NCBI GenBank assembly: GCA_016930085.1
Contig: JAFGHO010000028.1
Coordinates: forward strand, 1-64,000
Direction: 5' to 3'
Source of the DNA: Spirochaetales bacterium
GTDB lineage: Bacteria; Spirochaetota; Spirochaetia; SZUA-6; JAFGRV01
Length of the DNA: 64,000 nucleotides
Notes under the pieces: model-generated
What the model was told of the DNA's origin: nothing
What the model saw: the letters and a program-made list of their open reading frames with translations, nothing else
Databases searched by the model: none
Shown here: positions 48,327 to 56,016 of the stretch, piece by piece
Numbering within the stretch: position 1 is the first letter of the stretch
How the letters are laid out: each line of letters starts with the position of its first letter
Made by a program: the position numbers and the translations under genes

Positions 48327-50546
48327 ATGGATTCCAATCTTTATCAAATCTTCCAGAAAGCATCTGAAAACAGGCCTGAAGACGAAATTCTTTCTTTTCC
48401 CGATTATCTGGATCTTATCAAGCAAAAACCATGGATTACGCGAAATACCTTTCAACTGCTTCATGATATGATTCTCACAAGCGGTGTCGAATATACGATA
48501 ATACCAGGCAAACCCATACGCCACCGGTATAAATTTTTCGAGGACGAGCAGCTTGTCGGTGAGTACGTGGTGTTCGGCCAGCAGAAAGCAAAAGAAAACC
48601 TTGTTGAAAAAATCGATAATGCAAGCCGGGGGCTCGAGGCCTCCAAACGATTGTGGATCCTTCTGGGCCCCCCGGGGGCAGCCAAGTCACGCTCGATGGA
48701 CGGCATCAAACGAGCATTGAACATGTACTCAAAAACGGAAGAGGGGAGAACCTATACCCTTCTCATCCCCACCCTGGACGAACGGCTAAAGGAAAAAGCC
48801 CTCTTCAAGGAGGGAAATATTTATTATATCCAGGGGCCTATTTTCGAACGGCCGCTTCAGATAATTCCCCCTGCCTTGAGAAAGGATTTTCTTGCACAAC
48901 TCAACGCATCGCTCGATCCCGGCCGGGTCAAGGAGTTTCTTCACTCGCATCCCCAGTACGATAACGAATTCAGAATCAAGATAGACGGGCTGATCTCGCC
49001 CTTTGCCGATTTCATCATCAATGAATTCATGAATAAAAAAGAAATATCATTCGCAGAACTCATACCCTTTTTAAAAGTGAGGAGGATGATATACGACGCC
49101 AGAACTAAAGCAGGTATCGGCTCATACACACCGAGGGACGAAAAAAGCCAGGAAGCGGGGTCACTCGTCGGCAATATCGACTACAGCCTGCTTCCGCTCT
49201 TCGGCAGCGAATCTCATCCCCTTGTCCATGACTATAAAGGAGAGCTTTGCAGCGGCGCAAACGGGTTTGTCGAAATTCATGAAATACTCAAACTTTCTGA
49301 CAAATTTCTCTATGAAATGCTTTTTGCAACACAGGACAGGTTTTTTAAGCCCGAAGGCCAGCCGCCGATCCCCTTCAATGGGGTGATAATCGGACATACC
49401 AATTTTCACGAGTACAACATGTTCATGGCGAACAAAACGTTCGAGGCACTCCAGTCCCGAACCACATTCATAGAGATGCCGCTTTCTGTCAATTTCAAGG
49501 ACGAAGAGAATATCTATCTCTTTACCTATTCGAATGAACAGCGGAAATGGGTGAAAGCGAAGAAGCATACCGCCCACGTCGCCCCCCACAGCCTGCAATT
49601 CCTGAGTCTGGTCGCGGTGATGACGAGGCTATATGAATCAAAACAGAATCCCAATCTTTCCCTCCTGCAAAAAGGACTCATTTATGCGGGCCGGGCCGAC
49701 AGCGGTGTGGACAATAATATGGTACGGACAATTCTCGAGGAGTTCGAGTTCGTCAAACCCTCGGAGGGGACATTCGGACTCGATCCCCGTTTCATCCAGA
49801 ATGTTTTTGAAAACACCGAACATTTCCAGATCGACGAACATTATGCCAACATAAAGCGCCTGAAGGAGGAAAAGACCGATCCCGCCATGCTTACCTCAAT
49901 CGCACTGCAGAACCCCTGCGTCACCCCGCTCGATCTCTACGTGCGTATCGAAAACGCGTTGAAAGAGAATTTTGCGACAGACAAGACGCGGCTCAATCAC
50001 TATGTGGAAAAAATTCTTCCCCAGGTCAAGAAATGGATATTCGGCCAGATCGCGAGCGACGTTTACAGCGCGATACTCAGGGACGACACGGTTATCGAAA
50101 CGACATGGAAGAAATACACGGACCACGTCAGGGCTTATGCGCATAATACCACCGTGAAACACGAAGTCACCCAGGCCGATGTTCAGCCCGACGAACGGTT
50201 CATGCAGACCATCGAGCAGTATCTTGGCATTCCGGATAAAGACACCTTCCGGAAAGAGTTGAGTGACGCGATCGCGAGTGTCAGTTATTCGGTCCTTCTG
50301 AGTGACGAACCCTCGTACCAGAACGCGATTAAACGCTACGTATTCGAAAACGAGTTCAAGTCAAGGGAAAACATGAAACTGCTCGGCTGGATTAAAAGCG
50401 GCAGCAGCGCATCGAACGTCAATTCAAAGGAACAGGAACAATTGAACGAAACCGTCAAATACCTGATCAACAACCAGCGTTACTGCGGCAAATGTGCCTT
50501 TCAGGCACTTACCATCACGGCCAACTCCTCGAGTATTATGGTTTGA
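48327..50546 (+). CDS. prkA: PrkA serine protein kinase
   Basis: 739 residues. N-terminal AAA+ domain (about 20-400) with Walker A GPPGAAKS (114-121). The C-terminal PrkA domain (about 450-680) is related to cAMP-dependent kinases. Usually about 640 residues, so this has a longer tail (QRYCGKCAFQALTITANSSS at the end). In other bacteria prkA is often followed by yeaH/yhbH and spoVR/ycgB; neither is present here. It responds to starvation or stress in other bacteria, and in B. subtilis acts in sporulation control. Confidence 0.95.
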   Translation: MDSNLYQIFQKASENRPEDEILSFPDYLDLIKQKPWITRNTFQLLHDMILTSGVEYTIIPGKPIRHRYKFFEDEQLVGEYVVFGQQKAKENLVEKIDNASRGLEASKRLWILLGPPGAAKSRSMDGIKRALNMYSKTEEGRTYTLLIPTLDERLKEKALFKEGNIYYIQGPIFERPLQIIPPALRKDFLAQLNASLDPGRVKEFLHSHPQYDNEFRIKIDGLISPFADFIINEFMNKKEISFAELIPFLKVRRMIYDARTKAGIGSYTPRDEKSQEAGSLVGNIDYSLLPLFGSESHPLVHDYKGELCSGANGFVEIHEILKLSDKFLYEMLFATQDRFFKPEGQPPIPFNGVIIGHTNFHEYNMFMANKTFEALQSRTTFIEMPLSVNFKDEENIYLFTYSNEQRKWVKAKKHTAHVAPHSLQFLSLVAVMTRLYESKQNPNLSLLQKGLIYAGRADSGVDNNMVRTILEEFEFVKPSEGTFGLDPRFIQNVFENTEHFQIDEHYANIKRLKEEKTDPAMLTSIALQNPCVTPLDLYVRIENALKENFATDKTRLNHYVEKILPQVKKWIFGQIASDVYSAILRDDTVIETTWKKYTDHVRAYAHNTTVKHEVTQADVQPDERFMQTIEQYLGIPDKDTFRKELSDAIASVSYSVLLSDEPSYQNAIKRYVFENEFKSRENMKLLGWIKSGSSASNVNSKEQEQLNETVKYLINNQRYCGKCAFQALTITANSSSIMV

Positions 50547-51510: not shown

Positions 51511-52305
51511 TCAATAACCGCCCCTATGTTTTACGACAAGCCCGCTGATTTTTCGAAATACCGTTTCGAGTCTTTTCGCCTCCCTTCCCGACAGCCCGGC
51601 GCGGGCAAGAATATCCTTGAAAAAACGGCCGAGATCTTCCGGTTTGCCCCTTGTAAAAAACCCGATGTGTTTGAGTGAGTGAATCATCACGGAGACCAGC
51701 AGTTTCAGTTTTTCATCCGTTATCGGTGTATATCGTGAGTGCGATCCGGCGGTTGTTGATTCCCTGTATAACAGGTAGGCAAGAATTTGAACGGCGTGAG
51801 AAAGGTTGAGTGAAGGGAAAAGGGGTGAACTCGGGATGTGTACGGCCACATGGCAGAGAGCGAGTTCGGCATCCGAAAGCCCCGATTCTTCATTTCCGAA
51901 TACAAAAGCCGCTTTTCCGTTCGGATGCTGCATTATTTTTGCTATCGCCTCTTCCGGCGACAGGGAAAAGTATTTCCTTTTTTTCCCCCTCCGCCTCGTT
52001 ACTCCCAGAACGAGAGAAATATCCCCGATCGCCTCTTCAAGCCGGCTTACCGTCATCGCTTGTTCGAACACATCATATGCATGAATGGCGAGATTTTTTA
52101 CCTCGGTGAGATCAAGCCTTTTCCTTCCGACAATGGCAAGCGACTTCACGTGCATTGTTTTCATTGCCCTGCATACCGCACCGACATTTTTCGCATCCTG
52201 CGGATGAACCAGAATGATGCGAATATTCTCCAAAGCACTGTCCATAACAAAGGATACCATATCGTTGCTTGTCTCGACAACCTGCACCGGACCCCCGTTC
52301 ATCAT
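51511..52305 (-). CDS. TrmJ-like tRNA 2'-O-methyltransferase (TrmH family)
   Basis: 264 residues (ATG 52305 or 52302; MDSALENIRI at residue 21 is the core start). Three SPOUT motifs are clear: NVGAVCRAMKTMHVKSLAIV, then AFVFGNEESGLSDAEL, then IPSSPLFPSLNLSHAVQILAYLLY. TrmJ methylates ribose 32 of tRNA. The C-terminal extension (from about 185) is helical as in TrmJ. No ribosome site is evident upstream. Confidence 0.9.
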   Translation of the reverse strand: MMNGGPVQVVETSNDMVSFVMDSALENIRIILVHPQDAKNVGAVCRAMKTMHVKSLAIVGRKRLDLTEVKNLAIHAYDVFEQAMTVSRLEEAIGDISLVLGVTRRRGKKRKYFSLSPEEAIAKIMQHPNGKAAFVFGNEESGLSDAELALCHVAVHIPSSPLFPSLNLSHAVQILAYLLYRESTTAGSHSRYTPITDEKLKLLVSVMIHSLKHIGFFTRGKPEDLGRFFKDILARAGLSGREAKRLETVFRKISGLVVKHRGGY

Positions 52306-52711
52306 CCCGAATCAGGCGAAAACCGCGCTGCCGGACCGTATACCGTATGGCAAACAAAAGCATATACGGCGTATCCGGCGATAAAAGTTCATATTTTTAA
52401 GTTTTTACCCGTTAAATTCCACTTCTCTTTGATATAAAAACGTGTAAAATACGTGAAAACGATTGGAAAACTATGATAATGTAGTTATTATTGATAAACT
52501 GTAATAAATCCGGGATAGTCTTTTGAAATAGACAAAAATTACCGATGATATGATATGGATAGAATGCAGGTGAGAGAAACCGGCAAACATGATACTTTTT
52601 TTTGAATTTTATTTGACAAATACCTGTATGATTTATAATATATAAACTGTATCAGTGAGGTTGATTTTTTTTATGCAATCGTGTAAATATAATTGGGCAT
52701 AAAGGAATACT
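52306..52711. other. intergenic region carrying the promoter of the STAS/PspA cluster
   Basis: 406 bases, AT-rich, without a gene. A strong promoter lies at 52613-52641 (separate entry). The long untranslated leader after it (about 65 bases) may contain regulatory structure, though no riboswitch was recognised. Confidence 0.5.
52613..52641 (+). promoter_or_regulatory. strong sigma-70 promoter of the STAS/PspA cluster
   Basis: TTGACA (52613-52618), exactly 17 bases, TAATAT (52636-52641). Transcription should start near 52648. No sigma-54 element, which controls pspA in E. coli, is present. Confidence 0.85.
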
Positions 52712-53260
52712 ATGAATAATGAAATAGTTCCTGGTTTTGATGACGAAAAGGACGATAGTCTAAAAATACGACTCCAGAATTTCAAAGATATAAATGGACT
52801 TGTTGCCTTATACCTGACAGGCTATATTGACACATATAATTCCAACAACTTTCAAAAACGTGTGGGAAAAGCGATTGAATCGGGATTTACAAAGCTTATT
52901 TTTCATTGCGGCGGACTAAACTATGTGTCAAGTACCGGAATCGGGTCATTTACGGCGTTTCTTAAATCCGTCAAACCGCGCGGAGGAGATATTGTCCTCC
53001 TCGAGATTCAACCCAAGGTATATGAAGTGTTTCAACTCCTCGGTTTTTCTCAATTTTTCAATATCAAAGACAACCTCGAAGAAGCGGTTGCTTTTTTCAG
53101 AAAAACAACAGACGAATTAAAACCAGAAATATTCCCCAAAATTTTCAAATGCCCTATTTGCTCTAAAAAATTAAAAGCCATAAAAGCCGGTCGATTTCGA
53201 TGTTCCGAATGTAAAAGCATCCTGGTGATCGATAATACGGGCCAGGTATTACTTGGGTAA
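52712..53260 (+). CDS. STAS domain protein with C-terminal zinc ribbon
   Basis: 182 residues. Residues about 18-120 are an anti-sigma-factor-antagonist STAS domain (LVALYLTGYIDTYNSNNFQKRV, then LNYVSSTGIGSFTAFL, where the Ser-Ser pair carries the usual phosphorylated Ser). A zinc ribbon ends the protein (CPICSKKL and CSECKSIL). STAS proteins act in partner-switching with a kinase and a phosphatase, but none is in the cluster. First gene behind a strong promoter; it opens the PspA cluster. Confidence 0.88.
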   Translation: MNNEIVPGFDDEKDDSLKIRLQNFKDINGLVALYLTGYIDTYNSNNFQKRVGKAIESGFTKLIFHCGGLNYVSSTGIGSFTAFLKSVKPRGGDIVLLEIQPKVYEVFQLLGFSQFFNIKDNLEEAVAFFRKTTDELKPEIFPKIFKCPICSKKLKAIKAGRFRCSECKSILVIDNTGQVLLG

Positions 53261-53308
53261 GGAATCATCGTTTCTTTATCCAAAATATTAAATATATGGG
53301 AGAGGCTT

Positions 53309-53692
53309 ATGAATATCAAAGAGAAAATAGAGAATTATTTTATCGAGCTCGATGTCCCCTATGAGCGAAAAGAGGATAACCTCTGGATTATTTCAGACGA
53401 AAGCAGGTCGCTTCAAAATATCGCGGTTACTCTGGAGGATTCTATTGTGACAATTACCGTCAATGTTATGCAAGTGCCAAATAAAGGGAAGGAAGAACTT
53501 TTCAGCAAGCTTTTAGCACTCAATGCAACGGATTTAATGCATGGTGCTTATGCAATTGAAGGAAATGCAATCGTCCTTCTTGATACGCTTGAGGGAGAAA
53601 CCCTCGATTTAAAGGAACTGCAGGCTTCTCTTGACGCAATTGGATTGGCACTGACCCAACACTACAAGGTACTTGCAGAGTATCGAAATTAA
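53309..53692 (+). CDS. YbjN-like/type III chaperone-like protein
   Basis: 127 residues. The sequence follows the YbjN/CesT-like pattern of beta strands and two helices (MNIKEKIENYFIELDVPYERKEDNLWII, then GKEELFSKLLALNATDLMHGAYAIEGNAIVLLDTLEG). Proteins of this fold bind and keep partner proteins soluble. It stands 19 bases before pspA, so it may be a PspA-associated chaperone. Assigned by overall pattern only. Confidence 0.65.
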   Translation: MNIKEKIENYFIELDVPYERKEDNLWIISDESRSLQNIAVTLEDSIVTITVNVMQVPNKGKEELFSKLLALNATDLMHGAYAIEGNAIVLLDTLEGETLDLKELQASLDAIGLALTQHYKVLAEYRN

Positions 53693-53710
53693 GAAAAGGA
53701 GGTCTTTCGT

Positions 53711-54400
53711 ATGGGAATTTTTAAGAGAGTATCAGACGTATTCAAGGCAAATATAAATGATTTGATCAGCAAGGCAGAAGATCCGGAAAAAATGCTCAAT
53801 CAGATGATTATCGATATGAACGAACATCTTATTGATGCAAAAAAAGGTGTCGCCTCTGCAATCGCCGATGAAAAAAGACTCGAACGGCAGATGAATGAAA
53901 ATCTTCAGAAAGCACAGGAATGGGAAGGCAAGGCAATGATCGCCCTCAAGGCCGGAAAAGAAGATCTTGCAAAACAGGCACTGCTTCGCAAACAGGAGTA
54001 TGCGAACTATCATGGTGAGTTAAAACCCCAATGGGAAGCGCAGCACGCCGCAGTGTCGAAACTCAAGGATTCATTACGGGCACTTCAACAGAAAATTGAG
54101 GAAGCCCAGAGAAAGAAGAATATCCTTATTGCACGGGCAAAGAGGGCCGAGACGACAAAGAAAATCCAGCAGACCATGGGCTCGATGGCAAACAATAATG
54201 CTTTTGCCGTGTTCGACAGAATGTCCCAGAAGGTCGACAGAATAGAGGCAGAAGCCGATGCGCTGGGAGAACTCGAAGATATGAGCGCATCATCCGACCT
54301 GGACAAACAATTCAAGGAACTCGAGTCTTCGGGGACGAGTGCCGACCTCCTTCTCGAGGAATTGAAGGCAAAAATGGACAAAGAAGGCGGCGGGGAGTAA
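53711..54400 (+). CDS. pspA: PspA/IM30 (Vipp1) family membrane-stress protein
   Basis: 229 residues of continuous coiled coil. Typical PspA start MGIFKRVSDVFKANINDLISKAEDPEKMLNQMI and the conserved helices with heptad Leu/Ala pattern. Ends with an acidic tail. PspA-family proteins bind stressed membranes and form rings like ESCRT-III. Ribosome site aaggagg precedes ATG 53711. No PspB, PspC or PspF is in the window, so control may run through the STAS protein and the winged-helix regulator around it. Confidence 0.95.
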   Translation: MGIFKRVSDVFKANINDLISKAEDPEKMLNQMIIDMNEHLIDAKKGVASAIADEKRLERQMNENLQKAQEWEGKAMIALKAGKEDLAKQALLRKQEYANYHGELKPQWEAQHAAVSKLKDSLRALQQKIEEAQRKKNILIARAKRAETTKKIQQTMGSMANNNAFAVFDRMSQKVDRIEAEADALGELEDMSASSDLDKQFKELESSGTSADLLLEELKAKMDKEGGGE

Positions 54401-54447
54401 TAGAAAACAAATTCAGAGTCAATATCATCACCGGCAGTCAATCCCTG

Positions 54448-55041
54448 GTGGAACGAATAAAGTTTTATTTCAGGGAACGTGACGATATTGAGATTCTTTT
54501 TTCCGAAAAACCGCTTACTGAAGACAAAGCGGATATCTATATCGCTCCGGCAGAAGAAATCGAGGCGATTCTGGACCGGAGAAATACGGCGGACAACGGG
54601 CTTCCGATAATCGGATACGGAAGCCCTTCTTATTTACGAAAGGCATTTCTATCAGGGTGTTCGGATTATCTTAAAGACGAGTGGGCGATTGACGAGCTTG
54701 ATGTCAGGCTTACCCGTATCAAGAACATCTGTGAAAAGCATTATTCTTTTCCCTGGGGCAGTATCTCCTTCAGGGGAACCGGGGCAATAACTGCCTTGGG
54801 AATCGCCCCCCTCTCTATACATGAATATAAAATACTTACCCGTTTGCTGAGACAACGGGGAAAAACCGTCAGCAGAGAAGTGTTGTTTTATACGATCTGG
54901 AACAAAAGAGGAAACACTAAAAGCAGGGTGCTGGATGTCCATATATCCTCTCTCCGTAAAAAATTGACAAAAATAATTCCAAAGCCCGAAGCGGACACAT
55001 TCATAAAAACGATTAAAAACGGAGGATATATGATCCAATGA
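54448..55041 (+). CDS. winged-helix transcriptional regulator with degenerate receiver
   Basis: 197 residues from GTG 54448. The C-terminal half is an OmpR-type winged helix (LSIHEYKILTRLLRQRGKTVSREVLFYTIW, then LDVHISSLRKKL and the FIKTIKNGGYMI ending). The first 100 residues have the length of a receiver but none of its acidic-pocket residues or phospho-Asp, so it is probably not phosphorylated. The frame remains open upstream to the pspA stop, encoding a plausible beta strand (KFRVNIITGSQSLVERI) without a standard start codon; a non-canonical start is possible. It overlaps the phosphatase gene by four bases. Confidence 0.82.
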   Translation: MERIKFYFRERDDIEILFSEKPLTEDKADIYIAPAEEIEAILDRRNTADNGLPIIGYGSPSYLRKAFLSGCSDYLKDEWAIDELDVRLTRIKNICEKHYSFPWGSISFRGTGAITALGIAPLSIHEYKILTRLLRQRGKTVSREVLFYTIWNKRGNTKSRVLDVHISSLRKKLTKIIPKPEADTFIKTIKNGGYMIQ

Positions 55042-55586
55042 AAAGCTTCTTAACCGAATTGAAAAAAAAACAGAAAAAGCGGCCCCTGCGCATCGTCTTT
55101 GTCTGTACGGCTAACTGTTGCCGTTCACCTGTCGCCGAAATTCTCTTTGAAAAAATGCTTCTCAGTCGATTCAATTCGCTTTCCGATATGAACAGATACA
55201 TCATTATCGAATCCGCCGGCACCTCATATGACGATATGCCGATCTCGCAAAACTCGGCGCACATGCTCATGAGAGAAGAGGGGGTACCGGTACGGCGGTG
55301 TCAGCGGCATCGCGGGAGACTGATCACTAAAATCGAAAAACCCGATCTTATTCTTACGATGACCCGGCAACAAACGGACGCGGTAAAAACATCGGTTCCC
55401 CGCTGGGCCGACCGTGTCTTCACCCTGGGAGGTTTTGTCCGGAATAAGGACGGAGAGTCCGGTTTTGACATCCCGGATCCGATCGGAGGGCCGTTATCGG
55501 AATACAGACGAATGAAAGACCGGATAAAATCCGATCTGAAGTTGCTTCTTGAAGAAGCCGGGCTTTCCGGTCTTCTCGATCGATAA
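55038..55586 (+). CDS. low-molecular-weight protein tyrosine phosphatase family protein
   Basis: 182 residues. The active-site loop CTANCCRS (Cys23 to Arg29, the CX5R motif) and DPIGGPLSEYR, in place of the usual general-acid DP loop, are present. It is shorter of hydrophobic signal and cytoplasmic. The two consecutive Cys after the loop are reminiscent of arsenate reductases. ATG overlaps the winged-helix stop (ATGA). In this cluster it may dephosphorylate a protein involved in envelope stress. Confidence 0.9.
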   Translation: MKSFLTELKKKQKKRPLRIVFVCTANCCRSPVAEILFEKMLLSRFNSLSDMNRYIIIESAGTSYDDMPISQNSAHMLMREEGVPVRRCQRHRGRLITKIEKPDLILTMTRQQTDAVKTSVPRWADRVFTLGGFVRNKDGESGFDIPDPIGGPLSEYRRMKDRIKSDLKLLLEEAGLSGLLDR

Positions 55587-55680
55587 TATCCTGCTGTTGA
55601 TTCGGGTATATCCCGGATCAAAAATCATCGTTACGGAAGACGGATTATCAATAATACAGTCTATAAAGGGGTAAAAAAAG

Positions 55681-56016
55681 ATGAAAACAAAGAAGGAGTA
55701 TGTTCTGGGAATAATAGCGGCTCCTCAGGATGACGCCGAACATATTGCCAGGGTAATCGTGGAAAAACGCCTTGCCGCGTGCATACAAATCGCCGGTCCG
55801 ATATCGAGTTTTTACTGGTGGAAAGGAAAGGTGGAAAAGGATACAGAAGCCCTCATGTTTATAAAAACAAAAGAAAAATGCACAAAAAGCATAGAGGAGG
55901 TCTTAAAAACGATCCATCCCTACGAGATCCCGGAACTCATCTTTCTACCGATATCGGCCGGACTCCCGTCATATTTCAACTGGATCGATGAAACAGTGTC
56001 CGCTGCGCCGGTTTGA
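55681..56016 (+). CDS. cutA: CutA1 divalent-cation tolerance protein
   Basis: 111 residues with the trimeric CutA fold: IAAPQDDAEHIARVIVEKRLAACIQI at the start, SFYWWKGKVEKDTEALMFIKTK in the middle and HPYEIPELIFLPISAG near the end, all family signatures. The aspartate-histidine copper-binding set is partly visible. CutA proteins bind divalent metals or affect copper tolerance, although the role is debated. 94 bases separate it from the phosphatase, so it may be in the same transcript. Confidence 0.93.
   Translation: MKTKKEYVLGIIAAPQDDAEHIARVIVEKRLAACIQIAGPISSFYWWKGKVEKDTEALMFIKTKEKCTKSIEEVLKTIHPYEIPELIFLPISAGLPSYFNWIDETVSAAPV

What the first reader, a model, noticed from the sequence alone, without database searches (positions are those of the whole stretch)
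52613..56016. PspA cassette with STAS/zinc-ribbon, YbjN-like, winged-helix and phosphatase partners
One strong sigma-70 promoter drives a STAS/zinc-ribbon protein, a YbjN-like protein, PspA, a receiver-degenerate winged-helix regulator and a tyrosine phosphatase, with CutA behind. Classical PspB/C/F are absent. Partner-switching by STAS and tyrosine dephosphorylation may replace them. This is a plausible undescribed envelope-stress system.
Basis: partly seen in the sequence, partly recalled or inferred. Interest (0 to 1): 0.65.

Follow-up and report, generated by a model that had tools for sequence, protein, structure and literature searches.

The report
Conserved spirochaete PspA stress-operon variant
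Most of the spirochaetes examined here carry the same small operon, in which a membrane-repair protein (PspA) sits between its likely chaperone and a phosphorylation-blind gene regulator behind a very conserved signalling protein; it looks like an unstudied version of the bacterial membrane-stress response rather than an entirely new kind of system.

Summary
At 52712-55041 lie STAS/zinc-ribbon (STASzn), CesT/YbjN-fold, PspA and winged-helix genes behind one near-consensus sigma-70 promoter. In 80 named spirochaete loci, 39 keep STASzn-CesT-PspA-wHTH in order, 21 lack only the CesT gene, and 74 of 78 keep the promoter (0.6% of shuffles do). PspB is absent from all 26 genomes checked; PspC and a sigma-54 site are absent here. 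The 'YbjN-like' protein has the CesT/Tir chaperone fold, like BacA beside a Pseudomonas PspA; in a phylum sample all seven strong matches sit directly upstream of pspA. The regulator is an OmpR-type pseudo-receiver without phospho-acceptor Asp. The tyrosine phosphatase and CutA are a local add-on (1 of 53 loci), so 'dephosphorylation replaces PspBCF' is not supported. STASzn is a core spirochaete gene that survives without PspA; in other classes it sits in a SpoIIE-STAS-RsbW module, but that kinase has no match in this genome. Best reading: a CesT-chaperoned PspA membrane-repair unit plus a phosphorylation-independent regulator, expressed with STASzn. CesT-PspA dyads are already described; the STASzn and pseudo-receiver linkage appears undescribed. 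New variant of a known kind.

The parts
52613..52641 (+). sigma-70-type promoter TTGACA-N17-TAATAT
   Evidence: 10/12 consensus; conserved in the family alignment and in 74 of 78 related loci against 9/1560 shuffles
52712..53260 (+). STASzn: STAS domain plus C-terminal zinc ribbon (Cys147/150/164/167), 182 aa
   Evidence: PF01740 5.5e-21; four Cys invariant, Thr75 at the SpoIIAA Ser58 position invariant in 24 sequences
53309..53692 (+). CesT/Tir-YbjN-fold protein, 127 aa, probable PspA chaperone or regulator
   Evidence: PF22550 2e-28; AF2 pLDDT 92; Foldseek hits Tll0839 2plg, BacA 8q8o (TM 0.76), SicP, YbjN
53711..54400 (+). PspA/IM30, 229 aa, N-terminal amphipathic helix
   Evidence: PF04012 187.9 bits; only PspA in the genome; helical moment 0.50 for residues 1-18
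54403..55041 (+). OmpR-type regulator with pseudo-receiver and C-terminal winged helix; start codon unresolved (GTG 54448 or a rare start near 54400)
   Evidence: PF00486 7.7e-18; AF2 pLDDT 92, receiver fold lacking helix 2; acceptor position Pro in 32/41
55038..55586 (+). low-molecular-weight protein tyrosine phosphatase, C-X5-R motif intact; not part of the conserved cassette
   Evidence: PF01451 3.4e-20; overlaps wHTH by 4 bp; in 1 of 53 loci with long enough downstream sequence
55681..56016 (+). CutA1; not part of the conserved cassette
   Evidence: PF03091 1.6e-33; in 1 of 53 loci
51511..52305 (-). TrmJ-type RNA methyltransferase, divergent neighbour conserved in many relatives
   Evidence: TIGR00050 177.3 bits; upstream of STASzn in 40 of 80 loci

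Best explanation
A spirochaete variant of the PspA envelope-maintenance system. A conserved housekeeping-type sigma-70 promoter expresses the operon at a basal level, not through PspF/sigma-54 induction. PspA is the ESCRT-III-like membrane-repair effector. The CesT-fold protein most likely binds PspA directly, holding or loading it as a chaperone. The OmpR-type regulator cannot be phosphorylated by a histidine kinase in the usual way; it is probably switched by protein contact (CesT protein, PspA or STASzn) and adjusts envelope genes, taking the role PspF or LiaR has elsewhere. STASzn is an older, general spirochaete signalling protein that heads the operon and may feed another signal into it through its conserved Thr/Ser site or zinc ribbon. 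Shown: gene content, order, promoter conservation, predicted folds, loss of acceptor Asp, strict CesT-PspA adjacency. Inferred: every protein contact, the regulator's targets and the stress signal.
For: Order conserved in 80 named loci: 39 full, 21 without CesT, 7 without wHTH at the locus, 8 STASzn-wHTH without PspA. Promoter in 74/78. In 149 phylum genomes the CesT profile has 7 strong matches (E<1e-30), and all 7 lie directly upstream of pspA. The CesT fold matches BacA, whose operon contains a PspA homologue and whose loss raises its partners' abundance; a BacA-BacB interaction is cited there as unpublished (PMC10948618). Pseudo-receiver: acceptor Asp replaced in 36/41, Thr by Tyr/Phe/His in 38/41, Lys by Glu/Asp in 31/41; Foldseek matches include the atypical regulators HP1043, RitR and CosR. 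The regulator profile is cassette-specific in the family: 1e-68 or better for the cassette gene, 1e-23 or weaker for other regulators; Treponema-like genomes without PspA have only weak matches.
Against: The regulator stays with STASzn in 8 loci where PspA is gone from the locus, so it may serve STASzn rather than PspA. It evolves fast (median identity 27%, against 79% for STASzn and 61% for PspA), and a conserved target site was not found. The CesT gene is missing from 21 cassettes, so it is dispensable. No membrane sensor is encoded in the cassette. No expression, interaction or stress data exist.
Confidence: 0.55

Rival explanations
1. STASzn runs a classical partner switch (phosphorylation by an RsbW-type kinase, dephosphorylation by a SpoIIE phosphatase) whose output controls PspA or the regulator.
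For: STASzn aligns with SpoIIAA/RsbV and has an invariant Thr at the phospho-site. In relatives of another class it is flanked by a SpoIIE-domain sensor phosphatase and a HATPase_c_2 kinase. All 26 genomes tested encode SpoIIE proteins and 25 encode HATPase_c_2 matches over the cut-off; that profile also matches histidine kinases.
Against: The kinase next to STASzn elsewhere has no match at E 0.001 in this genome, and at best a weak one in the cassette-bearing genomes tested. A 1.14-Mb Treponema-like genome keeps STASzn at 67% identity without PspA and with no HATPase_c_2 match above the cut-off. No kinase or SpoIIE gene is in the cassette.
Confidence: 0.2
2. Promoter sharing only: the PspA-CesT-regulator unit settled behind the strong promoter of the core gene STASzn and has no functional tie to it.
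For: STASzn is found without PspA in Treponema-like genomes with the same upstream trmJ and has its own promoter in PspA-less loci. CesT-PspA dyads without STASzn occur in other classes.
Against: The linkage persists over dozens of families at PspA identities down to 47%, while the outer neighbours differ.
Confidence: 0.3
3. One reading: tyrosine dephosphorylation by the LMW phosphatase is part of the core circuit and replaces PspB/C/F.
For: The phosphatase has an intact C-X5-R motif and overlaps the regulator gene by 4 bp, suggesting translational coupling in this genome.
Against: Present downstream in only 1 of 53 loci; truncated in one family member and separated by about 1 kb in another.
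Confidence: 0.05

Closest known systems
CesT/Tir-PspA dyads (Ravi et al. 2024, PMC11237479), including YjfI-YjfJ and BacA-BacB (PMC10948618)
   Same: A CesT/YbjN-fold protein encoded directly upstream of a PspA homologue; fold match to BacA at TM 0.76.
   Different: Different sequence family (PF22550, not DUF2170); no flotillin/band-7, polyamine or YjfL genes in the flanks examined; instead a STAS/zinc-ribbon protein in front and an OmpR-type pseudo-receiver behind. The paper's main text does not contain the word STAS (supplements not read).
Classical E. coli Psp system (PspABC/PspF)
   Same: PspA effector.
   Different: No PspB or PspC in the genome, no sigma-54 promoter, no PspF-like gene in the cassette; constitutive-type sigma-70 promoter.
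LiaH-LiaFSR and other PspA operons with two-component systems
   Same: A PspA homologue with a response-regulator-like transcription factor.
   Different: No histidine kinase, and the receiver lacks the phospho-acceptor; OmpR-type winged helix.
Atypical OmpR-family regulators (HP1043, ChxR, RitR, CosR)
   Same: Receiver fold without a working phosphorylation pocket, winged-helix output.
   Different: Those are not known to me to be PspA-linked; this family has its own G-C-x-D-Y-L-K-x-P-W motif.
SpoIIAA/RsbV anti-sigma factor antagonists
   Same: STAS domain, conserved Ser-Thr-Gly at the phospho-site; related loci carry SpoIIE and RsbW partners.
   Different: Fused zinc ribbon, Thr instead of Ser at the phospho-position, and no kinase or phosphatase neighbour here.

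Membership tests
PspA/IM30 | PspA_IM30 domain over the cut-off, N-terminal amphipathic helix | tested here: met
   187.9 bits vs 33.9; helical moment 0.50
Classical Psp (pspABC-pspF) | PspB and PspC encoded | tested here: not met
   PspB in 0/26 genomes; PspC absent in this genome, present in 3/26
Classical Psp (pspABC-pspF) | sigma-54 promoter before pspA operon | tested here: not met
   sigma-70-type promoter in 78/78 loci; only two weak sigma-54-like sites
CesT/Tir-PspA dyad | CesT/Tir-fold protein directly upstream of pspA | tested here: met
   PF22550 2e-28, Foldseek, 18-bp gap; adjacency 7/7 in the phylum sample
CesT/Tir-PspA dyad | CesT protein binds PspA | not testable with these tools
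   Needs pull-down or structure; a BacA-BacB interaction is only cited as unpublished
YbjN family (PF10722) | Profile score over the curated cut-off | tested here: not met
   21.3 bits vs 22; same fold, however
OmpR/PhoB response regulators | Winged-helix output domain | tested here: met
   PF00486 64.8 bits vs 26.2
OmpR/PhoB response regulators | Phospho-acceptor Asp, Thr/Ser and Lys in the receiver | tested here: not met
   Acceptor Pro in 32/41, Asp in 5/41; Thr position Tyr/Phe/His in 38/41; Lys position Glu/Asp in 31/41
SpoIIAA/RsbV antagonists | STAS domain with phosphorylatable Ser/Thr | tested here: met
   TIGR00377 58.3 bits vs 53.45; Thr75 at the Ser58 position
SpoIIAA/RsbV antagonists | Cognate RsbW-type kinase | tested here: inconclusive
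   The orthologous kinase is absent here, but other HATPase_c_2 proteins exist
LMW protein tyrosine phosphatase | C-X5-R-S/T catalytic loop | tested here: met
   CTANCCRS in the translated sequence; activity not tested

The most novel reading that the evidence does not exclude
A Psp system with a new, phosphorylation-free logic: the CesT protein and/or PspA, released by membrane damage, directly gate a pseudo-receiver transcription factor, with STASzn supplying a second input, so that one soluble four-protein complex both repairs the membrane and reports damage.
Probability: 0.25. Interest if true: 0.7.

Novelty: new variant of a known kind. Interest (0 to 1): 0.5.

Why it matters
Envelope stress in spirochaetes is little studied, and this is a widespread candidate circuit in uncultured and a few cultured members. 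How pseudo-receivers are switched is described as a mystery (PMC12632262); here a pseudo-receiver family is genetically tied to a short list of candidate partners, which makes the question testable. STASzn, kept at high identity even in a 1.14-Mb Treponema-like genome, is a conserved spirochaete protein for which I found no functional study.

Tried and rejected
Tyrosine phosphatase and CutA as core partners: rejected by neighbourhood counts. Sigma-54/PspF-type control: rejected by promoter scans, though RpoN is in all 26 genomes. Cognate RsbW in this genome: not found. Rfam elements in the region: none. PDB sequence hits for the CesT protein: one marginal (Tll0839, E 0.008), resolved by fold search. 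Papers joining PspA with STAS, or on TP0233: none in the library; absence there is weak evidence. A conserved operator for the regulator was only looked for by eye in promoter alignments; some loci show two TTGAC boxes 11 bp apart, unexplained.

Full report
Observation. The second gene is better called a CesT/Tir-type protein: PF22550 at 2e-28, with the YbjN model just under its cut-off. The promoter TTGACA-N17-TAATAT lies 99 bases before the STAS gene. The genome (5.36 Mb, 135 contigs) holds a single PspA. One detail is unsettled: the winged-helix ORF has no common start codon before GTG 54448, yet the conserved first strand of its receiver-like domain is encoded upstream of that codon.

Conservation. 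Within the class, STASzn, CesT protein, PspA and winged-helix gene recur in the same order in many families. A scan with a STASzn alignment returned 80 named spirochaete loci. Of these, 39 carry all four in order, 21 lack the CesT gene, 8 lack CesT and PspA, 7 lack the winged-helix gene, and the remaining 5 show STASzn alone or with a cut-off CesT gene; 12 of the 80 lie close to a contig end. Median gaps are 52, 18 and 17.5 bases. An exact TTGACA with an acceptable -10 precedes STASzn in 74 of 78 loci against 9 of 1560 shuffles. The phosphatase and CutA are found in 1 of 53 loci with enough downstream sequence; in one family member the phosphatase is truncated. They are local.

Wider neighbourhood. 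The cassette usually sits in a longer block: rsmE, wecG-like, an NtrC-type ATPase, trmJ or the unnamed gene p10 on the other strand, a short-chain dehydrogenase, then the cassette, then one or two unnamed membrane proteins, a DnaJ-domain protein and murA (rsmE, wecG, dehydrogenase and murA are named from their sequences by eye). The window's family has kept the core but not most of the outer genes. Treponema-like genomes keep trmJ and STASzn but have no PspA.

The CesT-fold protein. AlphaFold2 gives a confident model (pLDDT 92). The best fold matches are Tll0839 (a YbjN-superfamily member), BacA, SicP, ExsC, YbjN and AmyR. BacA is encoded beside a PspA homologue, and its loss raises the abundance of the other operon products (PMC10948618). 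Ravi et al. describe CesT/Tir-PspA dyads as a recurring class (PMC11237479). In 149 genomes of the phylum the seven strong matches to our profile are all directly upstream of pspA (compare). A role as PspA's chaperone or regulator is the natural inference; binding is not shown.

The regulator. The N-terminal half folds as a receiver lacking helix 2 and aligns with a true receiver so that the acceptor Asp falls on a Pro; that position is Pro in 32 and Asp in 5 of 41 sequences, the Thr position is Tyr, Phe or His in 38, and the Lys position is Glu or Asp in 31. It keeps its own motif G-C-x-D-Y-L-K-x-P-W. Matches to the whole protein are OmpR-type regulators, among them the atypical HP1043, RitR and CosR. 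Phosphorylation control is therefore very unlikely; control by contact is inferred. In the window's family its profile finds the cassette gene far ahead of any other regulator. It evolves faster than its neighbours (median identity 27%).

STASzn. It is the most conserved member (median identity 79%), with four invariant zinc-ribbon cysteines and an invariant Ser-Thr at the SpoIIAA phospho-site. The genome has a 72% paralogue on another contig. In other classes it lies between a sensor SpoIIE phosphatase and an RsbW-type kinase, so the family can plausibly act in partner switching. That kinase has no match in this genome. In the cassette its role is open: input to the regulator, independent gene sharing a promoter, or a switch with an unlinked kinase.

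Psp membership. PspA is met. PspB is absent from all 26 genomes, PspC from this one, and no sigma-54 site is seen although RpoN is encoded. No cassette protein has a transmembrane segment. It works like a Psp system by inference; it is not the classical one.

Verdict. A real, widely conserved spirochaete operon, best seen as a variant of the known CesT-PspA class with two additions, STASzn and a pseudo-receiver, for which I found no description in the papers searched. The function in envelope stress rests on PspA's known biology and has not been tested.

Noticed in passing
L159, L160, L162, L174, L175, after the wHTH gene: In loci where wHTH follows STASzn without PspA, two to four consensus DnaA boxes (TGTGGATAA) lie within 500 bases after wHTH, the first next to or overlapping its stop codon, before murA: a possible replication-origin or DnaA-titration site.
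   Followed up: partly
L127:1699-6387 (also L123, L126): STASzn between a HAMP/sCache SpoIIE phosphatase and a HATPase_c_2 kinase: a compact partner-switch module in other spirochaete classes.
   Followed up: partly
L116:2306-3397 and relatives: NtrC-type ATPase with no recognised N-terminal or DNA-binding domain and GAYTDA instead of the GAFTGA loop, conserved near the cassette.
   Followed up: no
L100:8553-11284, L116:6174-9019, L112:7055-9769: Pair of unnamed membrane proteins (about 340 and 600 aa, no Pfam hit over cut-off) conserved downstream of the cassette, also in PspA-less genomes.
   Followed up: partly
G000:C60:17588-18124 (L113:5583-6125): Second STASzn copy in the same genome, 72% identical, two genes away from a TPR/HD-domain gene.
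   Followed up: no
promoters of L176, L179, L187, L189, L195, L198 and others: Two TTGAC boxes 11 bp apart at the STASzn promoter, the spacing of OmpR/PhoB-type direct repeats; tandem promoters or an operator.
   Followed up: no
window 48327-50546: PrkA-type serine kinase gene with both PrkA domains, upstream of the cassette.
   Followed up: no
L177 (record titled Planctomycetota): Carries the spirochaete cassette at 77% STASzn identity; likely a mis-binned contig.
   Followed up: no
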